This document shows, one piece after another, positions 1 to 8,702 of a DNA stretch of 64,000 bases. Under the pieces are notes generated by a model that was given only the letters and a program-made list of their open reading frames with translations, ran no database searches and was not told the DNA's origin. The position numbers were made by a program, and so were the translations under genes. This DNA is from Fimbriimonadaceae bacterium (lineage in GTDB: Bacteria; Armatimonadota; Fimbriimonadia; Fimbriimonadales; Fimbriimonadaceae): the NCBI GenBank assembly GCA_023957775.1, contig JAMLGR010000019.1:1-64000 (forward strand), read 5' to 3'. The first letter of the stretch is position 1, and every line of letters starts with the position of its first letter.

Positions 1-239
1 TAACCCGGCGTATACTTCTTCGTAGCGATTGTTGCGATGTTCAGTCCAGCCGTTCTCGACACCTACGACCCCGCCAACCGCTTGAAGGTGGTAGCCATTC
101 ATCCGGATTCGGGTTCCCAGACGTTGGCGAGCTACACTTATGCTGGCGATGGTCTCAGGAGAACCGAGCACGAACCAGGGAAGTCCCCTGGTCACCTTGA
201 TCTGGGACGGCGAGGACATGTTGGGAGAGATACTCTGAG
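1..239 (+). pseudogene. Rhs core remnant, frame-broken
   Basis: The left edge starts inside a Rhs/YD-repeat core. Frame 1 (from about 37) reads DPANRLKVV and then YTYAGDGLRR, a typical YD motif. At about 182-235 the core continues in another frame (VTLIWDGEDMLGE) and meets a stop at 236-238, and the following core piece starts in a third frame at 240. Two frame changes in 60 bases show that the upstream part is not translated as one protein. The 5' end lies outside the window. Confidence 0.75.
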
Positions 240-574
240 ATGGCGATGAGTGTTCGCTACACGAATATCAACGGCCAGATCGTGGCCGAGAAGCGCTCGG
301 GGACGCGCAAGATCTACTCATCGGACGCCCTGGGCAGCACGGTTTCGCTCTACAGCGGTCTGACCAAGACCGACTCCTTCACCTACTGGCCGTATGGTGA
401 GACCAGGACCAGCAGCGGCTCGACTCCGACCAAGTACAAGTTCGTTGGGACGCTGGGATGCCGCGAACAAGCCGATGGCGGCATCTACATGAGGGCCAGA
501 GTCGAGGAGCCGGAGAATGGCAGGTGGATGACCGTGGATCCGTTGTGGCCTGTGGAGTCAGCGTATGGTTATGC
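5..574 (+). repeat. Rhs core direct repeat, unit 1
   Basis: This stretch of about 570 bp is nearly identical to 1552-2123, from the shared tcgtagcgattgttgcgatg through the end of the Rhs core (VDPLW). The copies diverge abruptly just after the core, where the cassette-specific tip begins. That is the normal boundary between an Rhs core and its exchangeable tip. Confidence 0.85.
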
Positions 575-1049
575 TTGGATGTCGCCCTCTTCATACGTGG
601 ACGCAAGCGGAACAAGACCAGACGAGATTATGACTGACTGTTGCGAAAGAGCGTATAGACGCTATTTGGAATGCGCTCTCAACTCCGCGTCAGGCGCAAA
701 CCTGGCCATAGCGATCGGGCTCACCGTCGGAACTTCTGCGTTAGGTTTTGGGCTTAGTGCTGGCATCGGCCTTGGTTACATTGCCGTTTGCGAGCTGCAG
801 GCGGAATTTGAAAAGAGTGCTTGCGGGCTTGCCTATGCGGTGGACCATCTAATGTGCTCAGCCAACTATGTGTGCCGCCAGCCAAAATACAAGGAGATAT
901 GCAAGGCGATTTTTGGACATTGCTACAAACAGTTCCCCGACCAACCGTTCCTGTCTGAGTGTCTGAGGTCCGGGTTCACGCGTCTGCTGCGTCATGTCCC
1001 GCACCCCGAGTGCCCTCCGAAGGATTTCGACCCTTGGACAAACCGGTGA
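240..1049 (+). CDS. Orphan Rhs core end with a Cys-rich C-terminal tip
   Basis: Residues 1-120 are the conserved end of an Rhs core: VRYTNINGQIVAEKR, DALGSTVSLYSG, YWPYGE and GRWMTVDPLWPVE. After the core the tip (about 150 residues) is unique. It has a Gly/Ala-rich hydrophobic stretch (AIAIGLTVGTSALGFGL) and about ten cysteines. Rhs tips are usually toxins, so this may be a displaced toxin module, but I recognise no catalytic motif. ATG 240 and ATG 246 are both possible starts. The reading frame does not join the preceding core, so it may be silent until recombination. The stop overlaps the next gene by GTGA. Confidence 0.6.
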   Translation: MAMSVRYTNINGQIVAEKRSGTRKIYSSDALGSTVSLYSGLTKTDSFTYWPYGETRTSSGSTPTKYKFVGTLGCREQADGGIYMRARVEEPENGRWMTVDPLWPVESAYGYAWMSPSSYVDASGTRPDEIMTDCCERAYRRYLECALNSASGANLAIAIGLTVGTSALGFGLSAGIGLGYIAVCELQAEFEKSACGLAYAVDHLMCSANYVCRQPKYKEICKAIFGHCYKQFPDQPFLSECLRSGFTRLLRHVPHPECPPKDFDPWTNR

Positions 1050-1369
1050 ATCTCAATGGTTTCTTGGGATGGTTGGCTCTCTTGATAGTCGTCGTCCTGA
1101 TGACCGTGGCTATGCCAAATGTAGCGCAGAGAGTTGTGTCAGTTCCTTCCTATGCCCAAGATACAACTGCTGTATTATCCGCTGTGACTTCAATATTCAG
1201 TTGGATTTTATACGGGCATTCGCTGGCCAAGCTAAGAGATGGAAGGACTCGGTTTCCTCGCCTGCCGGTTTGGAGGGACTTCGTTTGGACAACCGTTTTG
1301 GTTGTCTCGGCGTCCTTCGCGTTGACTGGCTTCTATGCCGCACTTCACATTGCTATTCGAAAACTTTGA
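1046..1369 (+). CDS. Small membrane protein, candidate Rhs immunity protein
   Basis: The product is 107 residues if it starts at GTG 1046, which overlaps the stop of the upstream Rhs tip (GTGA). Three hydrophobic segments are visible: LGWLALLIVVVLMTVAM near the N-terminus, a central TAVLSAVTSIFSWILYG, and VWTTVLVVSASFALTGFYAAL near the C-terminus. Translational coupling to an Rhs tip and a multi-pass membrane topology fit an immunity protein against a membrane-acting toxin. That role is inference; I see no family-specific motif. An in-frame ATG does exist at 959, but it lies inside the preceding gene. Confidence 0.5.
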   Translation: MNLNGFLGWLALLIVVVLMTVAMPNVAQRVVSVPSYAQDTTAVLSAVTSIFSWILYGHSLAKLRDGRTRFPRLPVWRDFVWTTVLVVSASFALTGFYAALHIAIRKL

Positions 1370-1786
1370 TTGCGGAAATTCGGCCGCTTCGCAATACACT
1401 ATGAGTTCGTTGTCAAGAACCAGGAGGGATCGAGTCCGCGGTCCTACAGCTACAACGAGGTCGACCGGTTGGTAACGATGGTTCAAGGGGCTACCAAGTT
1501 CACCTACAGATACGACGGCGATGGCCTGAGACGGACCGAACATGAATCGGCCGGGGCGCTATACTTGTTTCGTAGCGATTGTTGCGATGTTCAGTCCAGC
1601 CGTTCTCGACACCTGCGATCCCGCCAACCGCTTGAAGGTCGTGGCGATTCATCCGGACCCGGGTTCCCAGACCTTGGCGAGCTACACTTATGCTGGCGAT
1701 GGTCTCAGGAGAACCGAACACGAACCAGGGAAGTCCCCTGGTCACCTTGATCTGGGACGGCGACGACATGTTGGGAGAAGTCTGAG
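1370..1786 (+). pseudogene. Rhs/YD-repeat fragment with frame breaks
   Basis: At 1430-1545 the frame reads SYSYNEVDRLVTMVQGA and then YRYDGDGLRRTEHE, two YD-repeat motifs. At about 1552 the sequence jumps into the start of the second core repeat, and from about 1575 the YD text continues in another frame (DPANRLKVV, YTYAGDGLRR). The junction looks like a recombination scar between two Rhs cores. No intact product is possible. Confidence 0.7.
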
Positions 1787-2123
1787 ATGGCGATGAGCGT
1801 TCGTTACACGAATATCAACGGCCAGATCGTGGCCGAGAAGCGCTCGGGAACGCGCAAGTTCTACTCATCGGACGCCCTGGGCAGCACCGTGGCGCTCTAC
1901 AGCGGTCTGACCAAGACCGACTCCTTCACCTACTGGCCGTATGGCGAGACCAGGACCAGCAGCGGCTCGACTCCGACCAAGTACAAGTTCGTTGGGAACC
2001 TTGGGATGCCGTGAACAAGCCGATGGCGGCATCTACATGAGGGCAAGGGTTGAGGACCCTGAGGATGGAAGGTGGATGACCGTGGATCCGTTGTGGCTGG
2101 TCGAGTCGGCGTACTCATATGCG
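1552..2123 (+). repeat. Rhs core direct repeat, unit 2
   Basis: This is the second copy of the Rhs core segment at 5-574, with scattered substitutions. It contains an extra base near 1997 (ttgggaacct against ttgggacgct in unit 1), which puts the end of the core out of frame. Confidence 0.85.
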
Positions 2124-2531
2124 CTAAATAGCCCTGCTTCCATTGCTGATCCGTCAGGGGCCAAGAGTACATCGCTGATATATGTCGCTATGAAGCCTAA
2201 GGGAGTCTACCCAAGCGACTGCGTTGTCAGGGTTTGCTCGAGTTACGGGTATGCAGACGATGACAGATACATTTGGGACCCATTCGTCGTGACACATCAG
2301 TTTGTTTGTGCGGTTACGCCAACCGGTCGAACGTGCGCATGGGGCAGGGGTGGCTCCGATGAGGAGCGCCAGTGCCGGGACGATGCCTCCGAGGGATTTC
2401 CTATTCGCTGCCGGACAGTGAGCACGAGTTGCAGAATAGCTGTGGCCGCGTGCCCTTGCATTGAGAAACTACGGTCAGCCCCCCCCCACTCTACTCTATA
2501 CCCTTTGGCACATGCTACCGATCGAAGGTAG
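1787..2531 (+). pseudogene. Second Rhs core end with its own tip, frameshifted
   Basis: From ATG 1787 the core reads MAMSVRYTNINGQIV through KYKFVGNLGMP and stops at 2014 because of a one-base insertion relative to unit 1. In the shifted frame the core continues (LGCREQADGG, DGRWMTVDPLW) into a tip that differs from copy 1. That tip is about 130 residues with many cysteines (CVVRVCSS, CRTVSTSCR, CPCIE) and ends at 2531. The shift makes the cassette inactive as it stands. Confidence 0.7.
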
Positions 2532-2720
2532 ATGTGGTAGATTGCATGTTTGAGCTGCTTGGGGAGTTACCGTGGTTTGAATTTGGCAGCAAGACCATGG
2601 ACACTAGCCACATGCTGCCTCAACCATACTGACGTGGTTGTTCATATCCCTTCTCACAGGCAATGGCGGGTATGGTAGCGCAACTCTACCTGTACTCGAC
2701 CATCGCTTTGCATAGGAACG

Positions 2721-3131
2721 ATGAGCGTAATCAACAAGATCTCTTGCCTTCTCATGACACTTGTCCTTGGTGTCCTCCTGTTTGTTGGAGGATTTGCACT
2801 GGGGACCTACAGCGGAGCGAGGCGAGTCATGATAACTGCTTCGGGACCGGTCACGAACACTATCTACAGTTATGCTCAGGATGGCAAGTACGATGCCTTG
2901 GTTAGGCAGAAGTTGGCGACTCCATCTGTAGTGGCCTCGCTTAAAGCCTCGGTGACTAACGCCGGCCCTATCGTGGGCTTTGAAGTCGTTGAAGTATTCG
3001 TCGGCCCGCTGGGCCTTCCCGCAACCGTTACGGTTCTCGTTGAGCGCGAAACCGGGACCTACACTGAGACGGTCATGTTCAACTCGTTGTTCAAAGCCGA
3101 CGTTGTCACTGTATTGCCTAAGTCGAGATGA
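2721..3131 (+). CDS. Small membrane-anchored protein, unknown function
   Basis: The product is 136 residues. It has an N-terminal hydrophobic anchor (LLMTLVLGVLLFVGGFAL, about 10-27) followed by a soluble domain that would lie outside the membrane. It sits directly after the second Rhs tip, in the place where an immunity gene would be expected, but it lacks translational coupling (189 bp gap). An aggaac sequence precedes the ATG. I recognise no family. Confidence 0.5.
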   Translation: MSVINKISCLLMTLVLGVLLFVGGFALGTYSGARRVMITASGPVTNTIYSYAQDGKYDALVRQKLATPSVVASLKASVTNAGPIVGFEVVEVFVGPLGLPATVTVLVERETGTYTETVMFNSLFKADVVTVLPKSR

Positions 3132-3138
3132 GACAGGT

Positions 3139-3520
3139 CGGGGTTCGTTGACCACGGTCATCTGGGACGGAGATGACACGATCATGGAGAAGAGCTGATG
3201 GCAACGGTTCGTTACACGGTCATCAACGGGCATATCATTGCTGAAAAGAGGGACGGCGTGCGCCAGTTCTACTCCTCGGACGCCCTTGGCAGCACCGTAG
3301 CACTCTACAGCGGATCCAACCAAGACCGACGCCTTCAGTTATTGGCCGTACGGGGATGCGCGGACCCGCACAGGCAGTACGCCCACAAAGTAGAAATGCG
3401 TCGGCACCCTCTGATGCAGAGAACAGGCGGACGGCGGCATCTACATGCGGGCCAGAGTCGAGGACCCTGAGGATGGTAGGTGGATGGCTGTGGATCCGTT
3501 GTGGCCGATGGAACCAGGCT
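3139..3520 (+). pseudogene. Third, most decayed Rhs core copy
   Basis: VTVIWDGDDTIMEKS is read at 3150-3197, then MATVRYTVINGHIIAEKRDGVRQ and DALGSTVALYSG from 3198. The core then breaks into other frames (YWPY-like text around 3340, RVEDPEDGRWMAVDPLWP at about 3455-3515) and stops at 3534 (EYNA then tga). It is clearly homologous to units 1 and 2 but has several indels. Confidence 0.7.
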
Positions 3521-3967
3521 ATGAATATAACGCATGATCTCGACTTGTGGGAGGACATTCGAACACGCTACGCTGCCCATAGTCCGAAGTGCTATAAGGT
3601 AACTAAGCCGAAGAAATCGGGTGCGATTATTGAGGACACGGACTCCAAGCTCGGTGAATTGCTCAAATATATTGATAGCCACGGAGAAACATCTGATGCG
3701 TCATTCTTTTCTACGTGCGCTAACAAAGTCCGGGTCGCCGCGGAAGTGTTATGCAAAGGCATCATTGTCAAGGCGACGAGCGGGACGCCAAATCCGGTCA
3801 CCCTCTTCGAATTGAACAGGAAGCTTCTTCCTGACTTGCTCCCCAAGGCAAAGCCGTACCTGGTCGACGGGAAGGACGGGCCTGTCCTAGAGTCGATCGC
3901 AAGGAAGACCAATCCCGGCAGCCATGATGATGTACGGAATACTCGGCGGTGTCCCGAATCTAGTTGA
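3521..3967 (+). CDS. Hypothetical protein after Rhs copy 3
   Basis: This frame codes for 148 residues from ATG 3521, which overlaps the end of the decayed Rhs core in another frame. The product is soluble, with a helical middle (KLGELLKYIDSHGE, CANKVRVAAEVLCKG) and no signal peptide. It may be a displaced tip or an immunity-type protein. I see no catalytic motif and do not recognise it. The last residues (NTRRCPESS) look like run-on sequence. Confidence 0.4.
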   Translation: MNITHDLDLWEDIRTRYAAHSPKCYKVTKPKKSGAIIEDTDSKLGELLKYIDSHGETSDASFFSTCANKVRVAAEVLCKGIIVKATSGTPNPVTLFELNRKLLPDLLPKAKPYLVDGKDGPVLESIARKTNPGSHDDVRNTRRCPESS

Positions 3968-4390
3968 AACTTTGTACTGAGCCCCCTTCCGGAGGGTAAA
4001 CCCCCGGTTGTACTCACCAAAAGTCAATTGCAGCATCCAATATAGCTCCCATGCCCAATTGATCGGCTGTCCCCATTGATCCCACAGCCCAGACACACTT
4101 TCGGATTTGGAACCCGGCAAGATCGATTCTATCCATCAAGCCCTTGCATTTGAATGCAAACACTCCGGCTGGGCCAGGAGGAGGGTTCTAATCGCGTCTA
4201 ACAGGGCCCACCACTGTTACCGCAGATGTTTGGTGACTCTGTCTTCGTGCGATCACCTTCTTCGCGCTCCGAGCACTCTTGGCAGCCGCCACGGGCCTCT
4301 GACTCACCCGTAGAGCATGGTCGGCGTTCTGCGACCCGGCCTCTCCAGAGATTCCCACCTCCCTCCTCCCACAGGCACAACTTTCAGTGA
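3968..4390 (+). other. No gene seen
   Basis: This is 423 bp between the Rhs graveyard and the AbiE pair. Only short frames without recognisable protein text occur on either strand, and no tRNA-like or repeat structure is visible. It is probably degraded cassette sequence. Confidence 0.5.
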
Positions 4391-4417
4391 TATACTATAT
4401 TTCAGCACGTGCTGAAA
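4391..4417 (+). promoter_or_regulatory. Putative -10 box and palindromic operator of the AbiE pair
   Basis: TATACT at 4391-4396 resembles a -10 box. It is followed at 4400-4417 by the perfect 18-bp palindrome TTTCAGCACGTGCTGAAA, which would cover the transcription start and abut the first ATG. AbiEi antitoxins are known to autorepress by binding inverted repeats in their promoter, so this is a good operator candidate. No convincing -35 box is seen. Confidence 0.55.
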
Positions 4418-5461
4418 ATGATTCAAATGCATCCTCCTCCAGCAAATCCAGAGCGGCAAAAGCGGGACATTATCCGAAAGATCCTGTCCCGCATGCCCAA
4501 TGCAGGCGTCGAGATCGTCGAGTCTCACAATCGCGAGTGGGACTTCGAGGCGCGCGTCAACACAGGCGCAGGCGAACGAACGCTCGTGTGCCAAGCCAAA
4601 TCTCGAGCCTGGCCCAACGAACTTCACGCGATCGCCTACCGCATGCATCGAGCAATCGAACAGCTTGGGAACGGCCGGCTCATTCCTGTGCTCGTCGCAC
4701 CCTACGTGTCCCCCCAGGCAGCCGAGTCCTGCCGTGAACTCGGATTGTCCTGGGCGGACCTCGCGGGGAACTGCGAGCTGCACATCGACGAGGCCTTCAT
4801 TCACGTGCAAGGACTGCCAAATCCCTTCCGGAAAGGTCGCGGCACCGCGTCGCTCTATAGTCCGAAGTCTTCAAGGGTCGTGCACGCGTTGCTTATCGAC
4901 CCCAAACGACCCTGGACCACGGAGGACCTGGCAATGGCGTCGGGAGTCAGCCTGGGGCAGGTTGCGAGCGTGAAGAAACTCCTTGCAACGAACCGTTGGA
5001 TCCGTGCAAGCTACGGTCACACCGTCCTGACCGAGCCAAGAAAGCTCCTGGCGGACTGGTCGAACCACTACAAGCCCAAGCGGAGCACCGTCCACCTGTT
5101 CACGCTCGACGCTCCGGCTGTCCTTGAGGAGCGGATCGCATCCACGGTCCCCGACTACGCCTTTACGGAGTTTTCCGCAGCCGACCGGTACGCCCCTTAC
5201 ACCCGCTATCAGAGAGTGGCGTTCTATGTCCCCGGTTGGGACGAGCAGCTCTCGAACGCACTTGATCTGAAGAGCGGGGACGGGGCCTCAAACGTCACGG
5301 TCTACGTGACCGGTGCACCGATCCCGCACGTGGAGGAAGCCGCTCATGCGCGTTGCGTCTCGCCGGTGCTTGTCTACCTCGACCTCCTGCAACTGCCGGG
5401 CCGTGGCCAAGATGCGGCCGAGCACCTGTTGGCATCAGCCATCGAGCCGAGGTGGAGATGA
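4418..5461 (+). CDS. Type IV toxin-antitoxin AbiEi-family antitoxin
   Basis: The product is 347 residues from ATG 4418; GTG 4409 is in frame but lies inside the palindrome. Known family features are an N-terminal REase-like or wHTH region and a DNA-binding part that represses the operon. Here residues 15-110 include EWDFEARVNTGAGERTLVCQAK, the arrangement of this COG4861-like group. A winged-helix segment follows (WTTEDLAMASGVSLGQVASVKKLL, about residues 165-190). Its stop overlaps the ATG of the nucleotidyltransferase by ATGA, the usual antitoxin-toxin order. It should neutralise the partner and autorepress the pair. Confidence 0.8.
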   Translation: MIQMHPPPANPERQKRDIIRKILSRMPNAGVEIVESHNREWDFEARVNTGAGERTLVCQAKSRAWPNELHAIAYRMHRAIEQLGNGRLIPVLVAPYVSPQAAESCRELGLSWADLAGNCELHIDEAFIHVQGLPNPFRKGRGTASLYSPKSSRVVHALLIDPKRPWTTEDLAMASGVSLGQVASVKKLLATNRWIRASYGHTVLTEPRKLLADWSNHYKPKRSTVHLFTLDAPAVLEERIASTVPDYAFTEFSAADRYAPYTRYQRVAFYVPGWDEQLSNALDLKSGDGASNVTVYVTGAPIPHVEEAAHARCVSPVLVYLDLLQLPGRGQDAAEHLLASAIEPRWR

Positions 5462-6180
5462 GGGACGATGTTTCCTCGGGTTCGGTCAAGGCTGCGAGGA
5501 TCGCCCTGGCTGAGATTGCGGAGATTCTTGAGACCTACCCCGGCGCCGTTGTCGCCGGTGGCTTTGTCCCGTATCTTCTGATCCCACAGCACGTCGAGCC
5601 TCACGAGGGGACCGTCGACATCGATTTGGTGTTGGCCTTCGATCAGCCAGGTGGGGACGATGTGTTCACCCTTCACGAGATTCTGGAGCGGCGCTTGTTC
5701 CAACAGGATCCAGGGAAACCGTTTCGTTACACCAAAGGGATCGATCTCGACGGCGAAATCTATCCCGTCATGGTTGAGCTTCTTGGGGGAGGGAATCCAC
5801 CACCTGGAGGCCTGCGCCGCATCGGCACCGAAGACGTTCATTTGAGCATCATCAGCGGGATGGAGGTTGCACTCGAGGGTCCCCTCGTCGTCTCGATTCC
5901 AGACACCCCGAATCGGACGATCAGCGTGGCGTCCATCCCTTCCTTTCTGTCGATGAAGGCCTTTGCCCTCGAGCGGCGCGAGGAGCGCAAGAAGCCGAAG
6001 GACGCCTACGACATCGTGTACTGTCTTCGAAACTACGACGGAGGCGTCGGGGCGATCGCCCAGGTATTCCGCGAGAAACTGCCTCACGCGATCATCGCCT
6101 CTGCCGTCGAGTCGCTGGGTGTTTCGTTCGGTTCGACGGATGCCGTCGGCCCCGTCGCCTACGCCCCGCGGGGCCAATGA
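5458..6180 (+). CDS. AbiEii-like nucleotidyltransferase toxin, C-terminus frameshifted
   Basis: The product is 240 residues from ATG 5458, overlapping the antitoxin stop. The minimal nucleotidyltransferase core is visible: VVAGGFVPYLL followed by TVDIDLVL, where the acidic pair binds metal. DAYDIVYCLRNYDGG is the typical helical part that follows. The frame ends at 6180, but text that looks like the family's usual end (GANDDENGALMRREAFERVQRLLALLAEG) continues in another frame to 6268. This indicates an indel at about 6160-6175 that removes the natural C-terminus. The catalytic core is intact, so activity is possible but uncertain. Confidence 0.75.
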   Translation: MRDDVSSGSVKAARIALAEIAEILETYPGAVVAGGFVPYLLIPQHVEPHEGTVDIDLVLAFDQPGGDDVFTLHEILERRLFQQDPGKPFRYTKGIDLDGEIYPVMVELLGGGNPPPGGLRRIGTEDVHLSIISGMEVALEGPLVVSIPDTPNRTISVASIPSFLSMKAFALERREERKKPKDAYDIVYCLRNYDGGVGAIAQVFREKLPHAIIASAVESLGVSFGSTDAVGPVAYAPRGQ

Positions 6181-6866: not shown

Positions 6867-8702
6867 TTGGCGGAAATCCATGATCTCGTGCGGTTGAAGG
6901 ACCTGGAGGGGCTTGAACGGCTCCTCCGGACCCACCCGGATGCTCGCTCGCTCGTGAACGAGCAAGACAGCTGGGGCACGGCGCCGCTTTTCCACGCCCT
7001 CGACTGCGACGATCCCGATGCGCGTATCGTGAAGGCGCTTCTCGATGCCGGCGCAGATGTTGGGTACGCGCGGGTCTTCGATATTCCTGACGTAGCGGGA
7101 TTCGTAGATGGCTTCGACGAGCTCCTCGGCGAGCATGGAATCGAGTTTCCCAAGTCCTTCTCCCTTCCAACAGGTCCCTTCACCGAGCCCGTTTTGCCGA
7201 TGGCGCTTCGGACTGGAGATATGGCGATCGTTCGACTGTTCTCCGAGCACGGTGCCGATCTTCGATACACGCGCGAGGCTGGGTACAACGCCATTCTCGA
7301 TGCCGTATATGTCCGTCGGGATGAAACGGACGTCGTCGAATACCTGCTGGAGCTCGGAGTCTCGCCGGACGTCCGGTCGAGCTTTGGCGAAACGCCGGTG
7401 GTCGTCGCGCTGCGCAATCAACGCTTTCGGTTGCTCGCACGACTCGTGGCGTTCGGCGCAGATCAGGCCCCGATTGCTTGGACCCCGCTGATCCGAGCCG
7501 CGGCCATCGGAACGTTGAGGGACGTTCAAGAGGAACTCGGAAAGGATGCCGATTTGAATGCGGTCGCGTCAACGGATCACACGGCGCTTCAGATTGCGTT
7601 GATGCGGGGCGACGAAGGGATCGTCGATGCTCTGTTGGCGGTGGGAGCCTCCCCCGCGAAGCAGGGGGACAGGGGACCCTCCTCGCTCGTTTGCGCGATC
7701 CTGGGCGGCTCGACGTCTCTCGTCCAGCGGATGCTGGATGCCGGTTGCCCCGTCGATGAACCGAATGAGATGGGTCAGTCGGCTCTGGCATGCGCGGCGG
7801 AGAGCGGGAACCACGATCTTGTTCGCCTCTTGGTCGAACGTGGAGCGGACCTATCCTCGGACGGTTGCGGAGACTCCATTCTCAGCCATGCCAAGGACAG
7901 CCAAACGGCACTCCTGTTGATTCGAGCTGGAGCCGAACTTACCAATCTTGACAAAGAAGCAATTCGGAGGCTCGTCGGCCTTCCGGAGGTCGAGCCGGCG
8001 TTTTTGGCGGGTGTCACCAAGGCCCAGTACATGGAGGCGCGACACCAGCGAGAGGGGCGGGCGAATCCGGAGGATCTGAGCCAGCCCTACCGTCTCGCGA
8101 TGATCCGAGCCGGTTGCAACGCGTACGAGGCGCGGAGCCGTTTTGACGACCCTGCAAAGGTCGCGTGCGGGATCTCCTGGAACAGGCGCCCTCCGCAAGT
8201 GTGGTGCTTCGATCGGTTTGGCCGGTCGTTCACGCTGCTGCCGGATGGGCGGACCATTCTGATCGCGGGCGAACATGAGGATTACTACGATCCGGACTTC
8301 TGCATCTACAACGACGTCGTGGTTATCCACCCGGGAGGCGAGGTCCAAATCTTCGGATATCCGTACGAAGTCTTCGAACCGACAGACTCTCACACGGCGA
8401 CCCTCGTGGGGGACTCCATCTGGATCGTGGGCGGCCTTGGCTACCCGGACCAGCGCAATGGTCGGATCCCCGTCTACCGCCTCGACACCATGGATTATTC
8501 GATCCATCGAGTGGAGACCAGCGGCGACGTCCCTCCGCGCGTCTACGGCCATCGGGCCGAGCTCGTCGAGAACGCCCTTGTCATTCGCGGAGGGCAGGCG
8601 ATCGTGACTTCATCCAAGGGCGAGGAACACCGAGACCTCGAGGAGGTCTTTGCCCTGGATCTGGAGACCGGTCGCTGGCAACGTCGACCAGCGACTTCTT
8701 GA
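6867..8702 (+). CDS. Ankyrin-repeat protein with a C-terminal kelch-like propeller region
   Basis: The product is 611 residues, starting at TTG 6867 after taggatgg. Residues 1-380 hold about nine ankyrin-type repeats (for example TALQIALMRGDEGIVDALLAVGA and SALACAAESGNHDLVRLLVERGADL). Residues about 430-605 hold kelch-like blades (FTLLPDGRTILIAGE, GDSIWIVGGLG, ENALVIRGGQA, VFALDLETGRW). There is no signal peptide, so it is cytoplasmic and probably a protein-binding scaffold. It lies alone between the AbiE pair and the nuclease-helicase. A partner is unknown. Confidence 0.75.
   Translation: MAEIHDLVRLKDLEGLERLLRTHPDARSLVNEQDSWGTAPLFHALDCDDPDARIVKALLDAGADVGYARVFDIPDVAGFVDGFDELLGEHGIEFPKSFSLPTGPFTEPVLPMALRTGDMAIVRLFSEHGADLRYTREAGYNAILDAVYVRRDETDVVEYLLELGVSPDVRSSFGETPVVVALRNQRFRLLARLVAFGADQAPIAWTPLIRAAAIGTLRDVQEELGKDADLNAVASTDHTALQIALMRGDEGIVDALLAVGASPAKQGDRGPSSLVCAILGGSTSLVQRMLDAGCPVDEPNEMGQSALACAAESGNHDLVRLLVERGADLSSDGCGDSILSHAKDSQTALLLIRAGAELTNLDKEAIRRLVGLPEVEPAFLAGVTKAQYMEARHQREGRANPEDLSQPYRLAMIRAGCNAYEARSRFDDPAKVACGISWNRRPPQVWCFDRFGRSFTLLPDGRTILIAGEHEDYYDPDFCIYNDVVVIHPGGEVQIFGYPYEVFEPTDSHTATLVGDSIWIVGGLGYPDQRNGRIPVYRLDTMDYSIHRVETSGDVPPRVYGHRAELVENALVIRGGQAIVTSSKGEEHRDLEEVFALDLETGRWQRRPATS

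What the first reader, a model, noticed from the sequence alone, without database searches (positions are those of the whole stretch)
1..3967. Rhs cassette array: same core, different tips, broken frames
At least three core copies (two almost identical over 570 bp) are each followed by a different tip. Frame breaks are present in all. This looks like a silent archive of tips that can be recombined onto a full-length rhs gene elsewhere.
Basis: partly seen in the sequence, partly recalled or inferred. Interest (0 to 1): 0.6.

Follow-up and report, generated by a model that had tools for sequence, protein, structure and literature searches.

The report
Split Rhs toxin genes in arrays
The broken-looking repeats are a decaying end of an array of toxin-tip genes that, across Fimbriimonadaceae bacteria, are mostly intact separate genes with their own start signals beside a toxin-shell gene, so these spare tips may be live parts rather than a silent store.

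Summary
The three cores and their different tips are real (93% identity over 562 bp; the third copy 75-77%). "Frame breaks in all" is wrong in an instructive way. The break shared by all copies is a stop codon followed at once by a new start with a ribosome-binding site. It separates a YD-repeat shell ORF (A; intact 1,089-aa copy on contig C10) from a B ORF holding the last ~104 shell residues plus the tip. Window copy 1 (240-1049) is an intact B ORF; copies 2 and 3 are truly broken.

Across Fimbriimonadaceae (Armatimonadota) the split is the rule. Of 109 distinct B cores, 6 are fused to A and 103 are not. B starts lie -10 to +26 nt from the A stop in all three frames, so no single frameshift explains them. 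A Shine-Dalgarno match precedes 95% of A-linked and 74% of free B starts (controls 36-37%). Free cassettes show low pN/pS, and their shared homology seldom begins inside the B ORF. Tips are cysteine-rich, some enzyme-like, and followed by membrane- or lipoprotein-like ORFs.

Most likely B proteins are exchangeable closing subunits of one shell, as TcC is for TcB, with recombination also shuffling cassettes. Translation and trans-assembly are untested. New variant of the Rhs kind.

The parts
1..58 (+). 5' piece of a NifU-like gene joined to a shell-gene end; the same junction stands in copy 2 at 1560-1609
   Evidence: blastn to C10 sequence upstream of the A gene; sequences printed side by side; the name NifU-like is by eye from the ORF
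59..238 (+). 3' end of the shell (A) gene, copy 1, ending ..DMLGEIL-stop (TGA 236-238), with GGGAGA at 223-228
240..1049 (+). B ORF copy 1: intact, 269 aa; core residues 1-104, then Cys-rich tip 1
   Evidence: TIGR03696 E=1.8e-9
1046..1369 (+). ORF of 107 aa overlapping the B stop (GTGA), two hydrophobic segments; candidate immunity gene
   Evidence: no Pfam match
1403..1785 (+). shell-gene end pieces in three frames, copy 2, ending ..DDMLGEV-stop (TGA 1783-1785)
1787..2014 (+). B ORF copy 2, first part of core, ends early by frame change
1941..2531 (+). B copy 2, end of core and tip 2 in another frame; tip matches a tip of a fused rhs in another genome at 29% over 157 aa
2721..3131 (+). 136-aa ORF with an N-terminal hydrophobic segment (by eye); possible immunity gene of tip 2
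   Evidence: no Pfam match
3160..3198 (+). shell-gene end, copy 3, stop overlapping the next start (TGATG), GGAG at 3186-3189
3198..3537 (+). B core copy 3, broken in several places (75-77% identical to copies 1 and 2)
3540..3967 (+). tip 3 region, lying inside a different frame (ORF 3356-3967)
3944..4010 (+). 67-69-bp element with one other copy in the genome, just beyond the C10 array's last gene (91%)

Best explanation
This is the decayed end of a split Rhs system. One gene (A) makes the YD-repeat shell up to the motif WDGxDYLGE and stops. A separate gene (B) starts at once from a ribosome-binding site that lies in the last codons of A, and makes the final ~104 residues of the shell, a PxxxxDPxG boundary and a variable Cys-rich tip, followed by a candidate immunity gene. 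Further B genes stand in tandem or dispersed as complete ORFs. Most likely B proteins dock on the A shell without a covalent link and close it, so that one shell can be loaded with any of several tips, as TcC subunits do on TcB. Cassettes also duplicate and recombine through their shared core. Shown: the anatomy, its recurrence across the family, start signals, selection on cores, cassette edges, tip and neighbour-gene features. Inferred: translation, docking in trans, toxicity, target and export route.
For: Intact A (1,089 aa), TGAG, then B (311 aa) on C10. 109 distinct B cores: 6 fused, 43 with an A-end ORF stopping within 60 nt, 60 free. A-stop to B-start distances -10 to +26, residues mod 3 of 26/13/4; starts 88 ATG, 10 GTG, 2 TTG; SD of 4 or more bases in 95% of 43 A-linked and 74% of 57 free starts, against 36-37% at random positions and 35% at internal ATGs. 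Core pairs within arrays: pooled pN/pS 0.21 over 79 pairs, 0.19 over 24 free-free pairs. Of 40 free cassettes with a partner at 78% or more, homology begins within 12 nt of the start codon in 19, further upstream in 20, inside the ORF in 1 (restricted to near-complete cores, see evidence against); identity jumps from 0.25-0.42 upstream to 0.81-0.88 downstream in 16 free-free pairs. The fused form sits in two places nested among split ones. The B core matches the last ~85 residues of solved Rhs, TcC and teneurin shells. Tips: 7.3% Cys against 0.4% in cores; HExxH in 17 of 102 (shuffled mean 0.23), PLA2-like motif in 8; weak to moderate Pfam matches to PLA2, M35, Tlde1, DUF6973 in a few. A next ORF starts -10 to +10 nt from the B stop in 51 of 97 (22% control); of 70 next ORFs, 54 have a membrane or signal segment (26%) and 9 a lipobox (0.9%).
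Against: No expression, protein or binding data. No promoter enrichment upstream of free cassettes against shuffled upstream sequence, so their transcription is unshown; about a quarter of the 57 free starts lack a 4-base SD match. Several arrays show only a short A end in the stretch fetched (L131, L144, L145), and none of the census cassettes in L137 has one. Shared A ends and cores would also serve recombination. Low pN/pS could be partly inherited from time spent next to A or kept by gene conversion. For tips dS is saturated, so selection on free tips is not shown. The census required nearly complete cores; a scan for partial ones found about three 5'-truncated cores in split lineages and six 3'-broken ones besides the window's. 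The A proteins examined show no signal peptide by eye and only RHS-type or weak Pfam domains, so export is unexplained.
Confidence: 0.6

Rival explanations
1. Silent archive: free cassettes are not used as they stand; a tip becomes active only when homologous recombination in the shared core puts it behind the A gene, as shown for orphan rhs in Salmonella (PMC3967940).
For: Cores cluster by array in the tree, as expected if cores are exchanged; 18 of 40 homologous tip pairs join a free cassette in one place to an A-end-linked one in another; some free cassettes lie on the strand opposite to A or kilobases away; no own promoter found.
Against: Free cassettes keep start codons and often SD sites, and shared homology seldom starts inside the ORF. 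Orphans of the Salmonella kind usually lack translation initiation signals (PMC3967940, passages).
Confidence: 0.27
2. B cassettes work inside the producing cell as toxin-immunity (addiction) pairs, as proposed for Salmonella rhs tips (PMC7043789).
For: Own start codons plus a close downstream ORF.
Against: Tips are Cys-rich and some look like secreted enzymes (PLA2-, metallopeptidase- and Tlde1-like), and the partner ORFs are enriched for membrane and lipoprotein features, which points to action outside the cytoplasm. They also keep the shell-closing core, which an internal toxin would not need.
Confidence: 0.06
3. Programmed ribosomal frameshifting joins A and B into one chain at the junction; free cassettes are remnants.
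For: A stop and B start overlap or nearly touch in most A-linked cases.
Against: Distances and frames vary (26/13/4 mod 3) and the junctions shown differ in sequence, with TGA, TAG or TAA as the A stop; free cassettes keep their start without an A gene.
Confidence: 0.03
4. Plain pseudogene debris or assembly error.
For: Copies 2 and 3 in the window are broken, and both C19 and C10 end inside a core.
Against: The split recurs in many genera, including single-contig assemblies, with low pN/pS.
Confidence: 0.04

Closest known systems
Tc (ABC) toxin TcB-TcC shells, especially Yersinia entomophaga YenB with three TcC proteins from different loci (PMC11067744)
   Same: Shell made of two polypeptides; the tip rides on the second; several second subunits with different tips can share one first subunit.
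   Different: Here the split lies at the last ~104 residues: the B core matches TccC2 residues 553-638. Seven A proteins show RHS repeats and no SpvB or propeller match in Pfam. No TcA match in 10 genomes, but that search had no positive control.
Enterobacterial orphan rhs-CT/rhsI modules (PMC3967940, PMC3150448)
   Same: Arrays of core end plus tip plus immunity gene near a main rhs gene.
   Different: Those usually lack initiation signals and are fragments; here most are complete ORFs with a start and often an SD site.
Salmonella internally expressed rhs toxins (PMC7043789)
   Same: A tip made apart from the shell.
   Different: There from an internal promoter and a CTG start; here a separate ORF that includes the shell-closing core.
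T6SS Rhs effectors (PMC8765631)
   Same: YD-repeat shell, core end and tip.
   Different: One chain in T6SS effectors (established knowledge); no VipB match in 10 of 10 genomes of this family.

Membership tests
Rhs/YD-repeat polymorphic toxins | RHS repeats in the shell protein | tested here: met
   PF05593 in 7 of 7 A proteins scanned
Rhs/YD-repeat polymorphic toxins | Rhs-associated core before a variable tip with a PxxxxDPxG boundary | tested here: met
   TIGR03696 in 100 of 102 B ORFs; P115, D120 nearly invariant and G123 invariant in 102 rows
Rhs/YD-repeat polymorphic toxins | Immunity gene just downstream of the tip | tested here: inconclusive
   Close next ORFs are enriched and membrane-like; function untested
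Rhs/YD-repeat polymorphic toxins | Shell and tip in one polypeptide | tested here: not met
   103 of 109 distinct B cores are not fused to A, three of these in doubt
Silent orphan rhs-CT (enterobacterial type) | Displaced core end and tip near a main rhs gene | tested here: met
   60 free cassettes of 109
Silent orphan rhs-CT (enterobacterial type) | Lacks translation initiation signals | tested here: not met
   57 free cassettes have a start at the core edge, 74% of them with an SD match
Tc toxin B-C pair | Two-polypeptide Rhs shell | tested here: met
   A and B ORFs, at gene level only
Tc toxin B-C pair | TcB with SpvB domain and beta-propeller | tested here: not met
   No such Pfam match in 7 A proteins
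Tc toxin B-C pair | TcA pore component | tested here: inconclusive
   PF03538: 0 of 10 genomes, but no control genome rang
T6SS Rhs effector | T6SS machinery in the genome | tested here: not met
   PF05943 (VipB): 0 of 10 genomes, control E. coli positive
Extracellular contractile injection system cargo | Contractile sheath in the genome | tested here: not met
   PF04984: 2 of 10 genomes, not in the window's own genome

The most novel reading that the evidence does not exclude
A modular shell toxin in which nearly every cassette is a live gene: one A shell is closed in trans by any of a set of B subunits, giving a mixed arsenal of envelope-attacking enzymes without DNA rearrangement, with a ribosome-binding site lying within the shell gene's last conserved codons.
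Probability: 0.5. Interest if true: 0.75.

Novelty: new variant of a known kind. Interest (0 to 1): 0.6.

Why it matters
Whether orphan Rhs cassettes are silent stores or working parts has been open since they were described. Here the tip genes are built as complete ORFs, so the question becomes a direct co-purification and proteomics test. It also gives a second, differently placed split of the Rhs shell besides TcB-TcC, in a little-studied phylum, with a large set of Cys-rich tips that mostly lack Pfam matches.

Tried and rejected
Programmed frameshift: rejected because frame and distance vary. Own promoters for free cassettes: no excess over shuffled upstream sequence (one search was the same kind of script and crashed on an N). 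RNA fold of the 67-bp element at the array end: no better than shuffles (z 0.63). Joining C10 and C19 across the assembly gap: none of the 52 other contig stretches fetched (contig ends and the rest of C19) holds the missing upstream part, so array order is unresolved. Selection on tips: dS saturated. TcA search gave no answer. In one search the translations c1, c2 and w3 were taken out of frame by mistake; I rely instead (in-frame tips of window copy 1 and the two complete C10 copies: none pairs with another of the three) and on the DNA comparison. The census removed cassettes whose first 300 core bases were identical, so G077's five tandem cassettes count as two. Structure prediction was not used: single chains only, so it could not test docking. 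Literature on a split Rhs gene or on Rhs in Armatimonadota: searches listed nothing that describes this arrangement; absence in that library only.
Full report
The observation. The window is contig C19 from its first base. Core copies lie at 7-565 and 1555-2113 (92.9% identity over 562 bp) and 3160-3523 (75-77%). DNA downstream of each core is unrelated among the three copies and three C10 copies. Each copy has an A-type ending (..WDGEDMLGEIL..WDGDDMLGEV..WDGDDTIMEKS), a stop, and within -1 to +1 nt a new ATG preceded by GGAG at about 10 nt (read). Copy 1 then runs open for 269 aa through core and tip. Copies 2 and 3 are broken further inside the core.

The full-length gene. Contig C10 holds a 1,089-aa YD-repeat ORF ending in DDMLGEV, TGA, one base, then a 311-aa B ORF; a second, 316-aa B ORF follows, and the contig ends inside a further core. 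Other rhs genes of the genome (C16, two single ORFs of 1,250 and 1,265 aa; C13; C8) showed no nucleotide match to the window or C10 arrays in the comparisons run.

Recurrence. With the 104-aa B core, 69 of 85 genomes of the same GTDB family match, many in open frames of about 230-360 aa and in tandem, including single-contig genomes. Named relatives are Fimbriimonadaceae and other Armatimonadota MAGs (43 loci; two contigs are labelled as Actinomycetota groups). A phylum search gave matches in 128 of 291 genomes at 1e-12, including other families; split junctions were seen in some of those, e.g. L208 and L210 (which looked at four). In a census over the window, C10 and the fetched loci, 179 B domains reduce to 109 distinct ones: 6 fused in frame to A, 43 beginning within 60 nt of the stop of an A-end ORF (11 of these A ORFs are 1,000 aa or longer), 60 free. 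Two of the free ones (L163) belong to the fused lineage and one has no start; the remaining 100 have a start codon at the core edge.

Why separate translation. Starts are 88 ATG, 10 GTG, 2 TTG. Shine-Dalgarno matches of 4 or more bases precede 95% of 43 A-linked and 74% of 57 free starts, against 36-37% at random positions of the same loci and 35% of 1,439 internal ATGs. The distance from A stop to B start ranges from -10 to +26 with frames 26/13/4, which no single frameshift explains (the -10 and +5 values depend on which frame or start is taken). Core pairs within arrays have pooled pN/pS 0.21 (79 pairs), 0.19 for 24 free-free pairs. In 16 free-free pairs of one array identity is 0.25-0.42 upstream of the start codon (background 0.26) and 0.81-0.88 downstream. 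Of 40 free cassettes with a partner at 78% or more, shared homology begins within 12 nt of the start codon in 19, at -13 to -30 in 9, -31 to -60 in 7, beyond -60 in 4, and inside the ORF in 1. That census required near-complete cores; a separate scan found 22 partial cores away from locus ends, five of them pieces of the window's copies 2 and 3, the others mostly from fused lineages or 3'-broken, and about three 5'-truncated ones in split lineages. On a tree of 109 cores (few columns, weak deep forks) the fused form lies in two places nested among split ones, so fusion looks derived. It is not proven.

Mechanism. The B core matches the last ~85 residues of solved shells: 8h8a 1047-1128, RHS2 583-663, TccC2 553-638, TcdB2-TccC3 2043-2126. 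A therefore lacks the end of the shell, and B supplies it with the tip. The working model is docking of B on A, with the free B genes as alternative subunits. This is how YenB takes three TcC proteins from different loci (PMC11067744; passages read). The tips are Cys-rich (7.3% against 0.4% in cores), with HExxH in 17 of 102, PLA2-type C..HD.C in 8 and YGxYCG in 8 (shuffled means 0.23, 0.16, 0.01), and Pfam matches at E up to 0.01 to PLA2, M35, Tlde1, SprT-like, NAGPA and DUF6973 in one to three members each. A next ORF of 60 aa or more begins near the B stop in 70 of 97 (41% control); of these 54 have a membrane or signal segment (26% control) and 9 a lipobox (0.9%). This suggests toxin-immunity pairs acting outside the cytoplasm. 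Export is unexplained: seven A proteins show only RHS-type or weak Pfam domains, VipB is absent in 10 of 10 genomes, and a contractile sheath is present in 2 of 10, not in this genome.

Against the model. No promoter excess upstream of free cassettes; some arrays show only short A ends in the stretch fetched; tip selection is not measurable; nothing shows expression or binding. The silent-archive reading keeps support from core clustering by array and from tip homologues that are free in one place and A-end-linked in another (18 of 40 pairs). Both may hold.

The window itself. Copies 1 and 2 share a join of a NifU-like gene's start to the end of the shell gene, so the local array grew after an internal deletion and is decaying. 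It is a poor example of a widespread arrangement.

Known work. Enterobacterial orphans usually lack initiation signals and were shown to need recombination (PMC3967940, passages; PMC3150448, passages). Salmonella tips can be made internally from a CTG start (PMC7043789, passages). Zhang et al. 2012 (PMC3482391, passages) list Tox-PLA2 and metallopeptidase toxins with RHS repeats. T6SS Rhs structure: PMC8765631 (passages). No paper listed was seen to describe this split in Armatimonadota; only titles and abstract beginnings of those lists were seen, apart from the six papers read in passages.

Noticed in passing
window 4409-6180: AbiEi-like regulator (PF09952, 7.7e-8) and AbiEii-like nucleotidyltransferase (PF08843, 1.7e-7): a type IV toxin-antitoxin pair next to the rhs array.
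   Followed up: partly
window 3944-4010 and C10:121863-121931: A 67-69-bp element with only two copies in the genome, each just beyond the end of an rhs array, in opposite orientations relative to the arrays.
   Followed up: partly
102 B tips: The number of cysteines per tip is odd in 73 of 102 (binomial p 1.6e-5, not corrected for relatedness), as if one Cys were kept free or used between chains.
   Followed up: no
L028 (C16:50000-69999): Two single-ORF rhs genes, 90.6% identical over 3.7 kb with different tips, in the same genome as the split type.
   Followed up: no
L126 (G077:C1): Five tandem intact B ORFs with nearly identical cores, while the A gene there reads in two overlapping frames.
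   Followed up: no
L149, L163: Contigs labelled as Actinomycetota groups carry these genes; L149 has the same match coordinates as G211, which the phylum search places in Armatimonadota, so the label is probably wrong.
   Followed up: partly
window 6867-8702: 611-aa ankyrin plus kelch-like protein.
   Followed up: no
C10 contig end 138795 and C19 contig start: Both contigs break inside a B core or shell end with the upstream side missing; none of the other contig ends fetched holds the missing part.
   Followed up: yes
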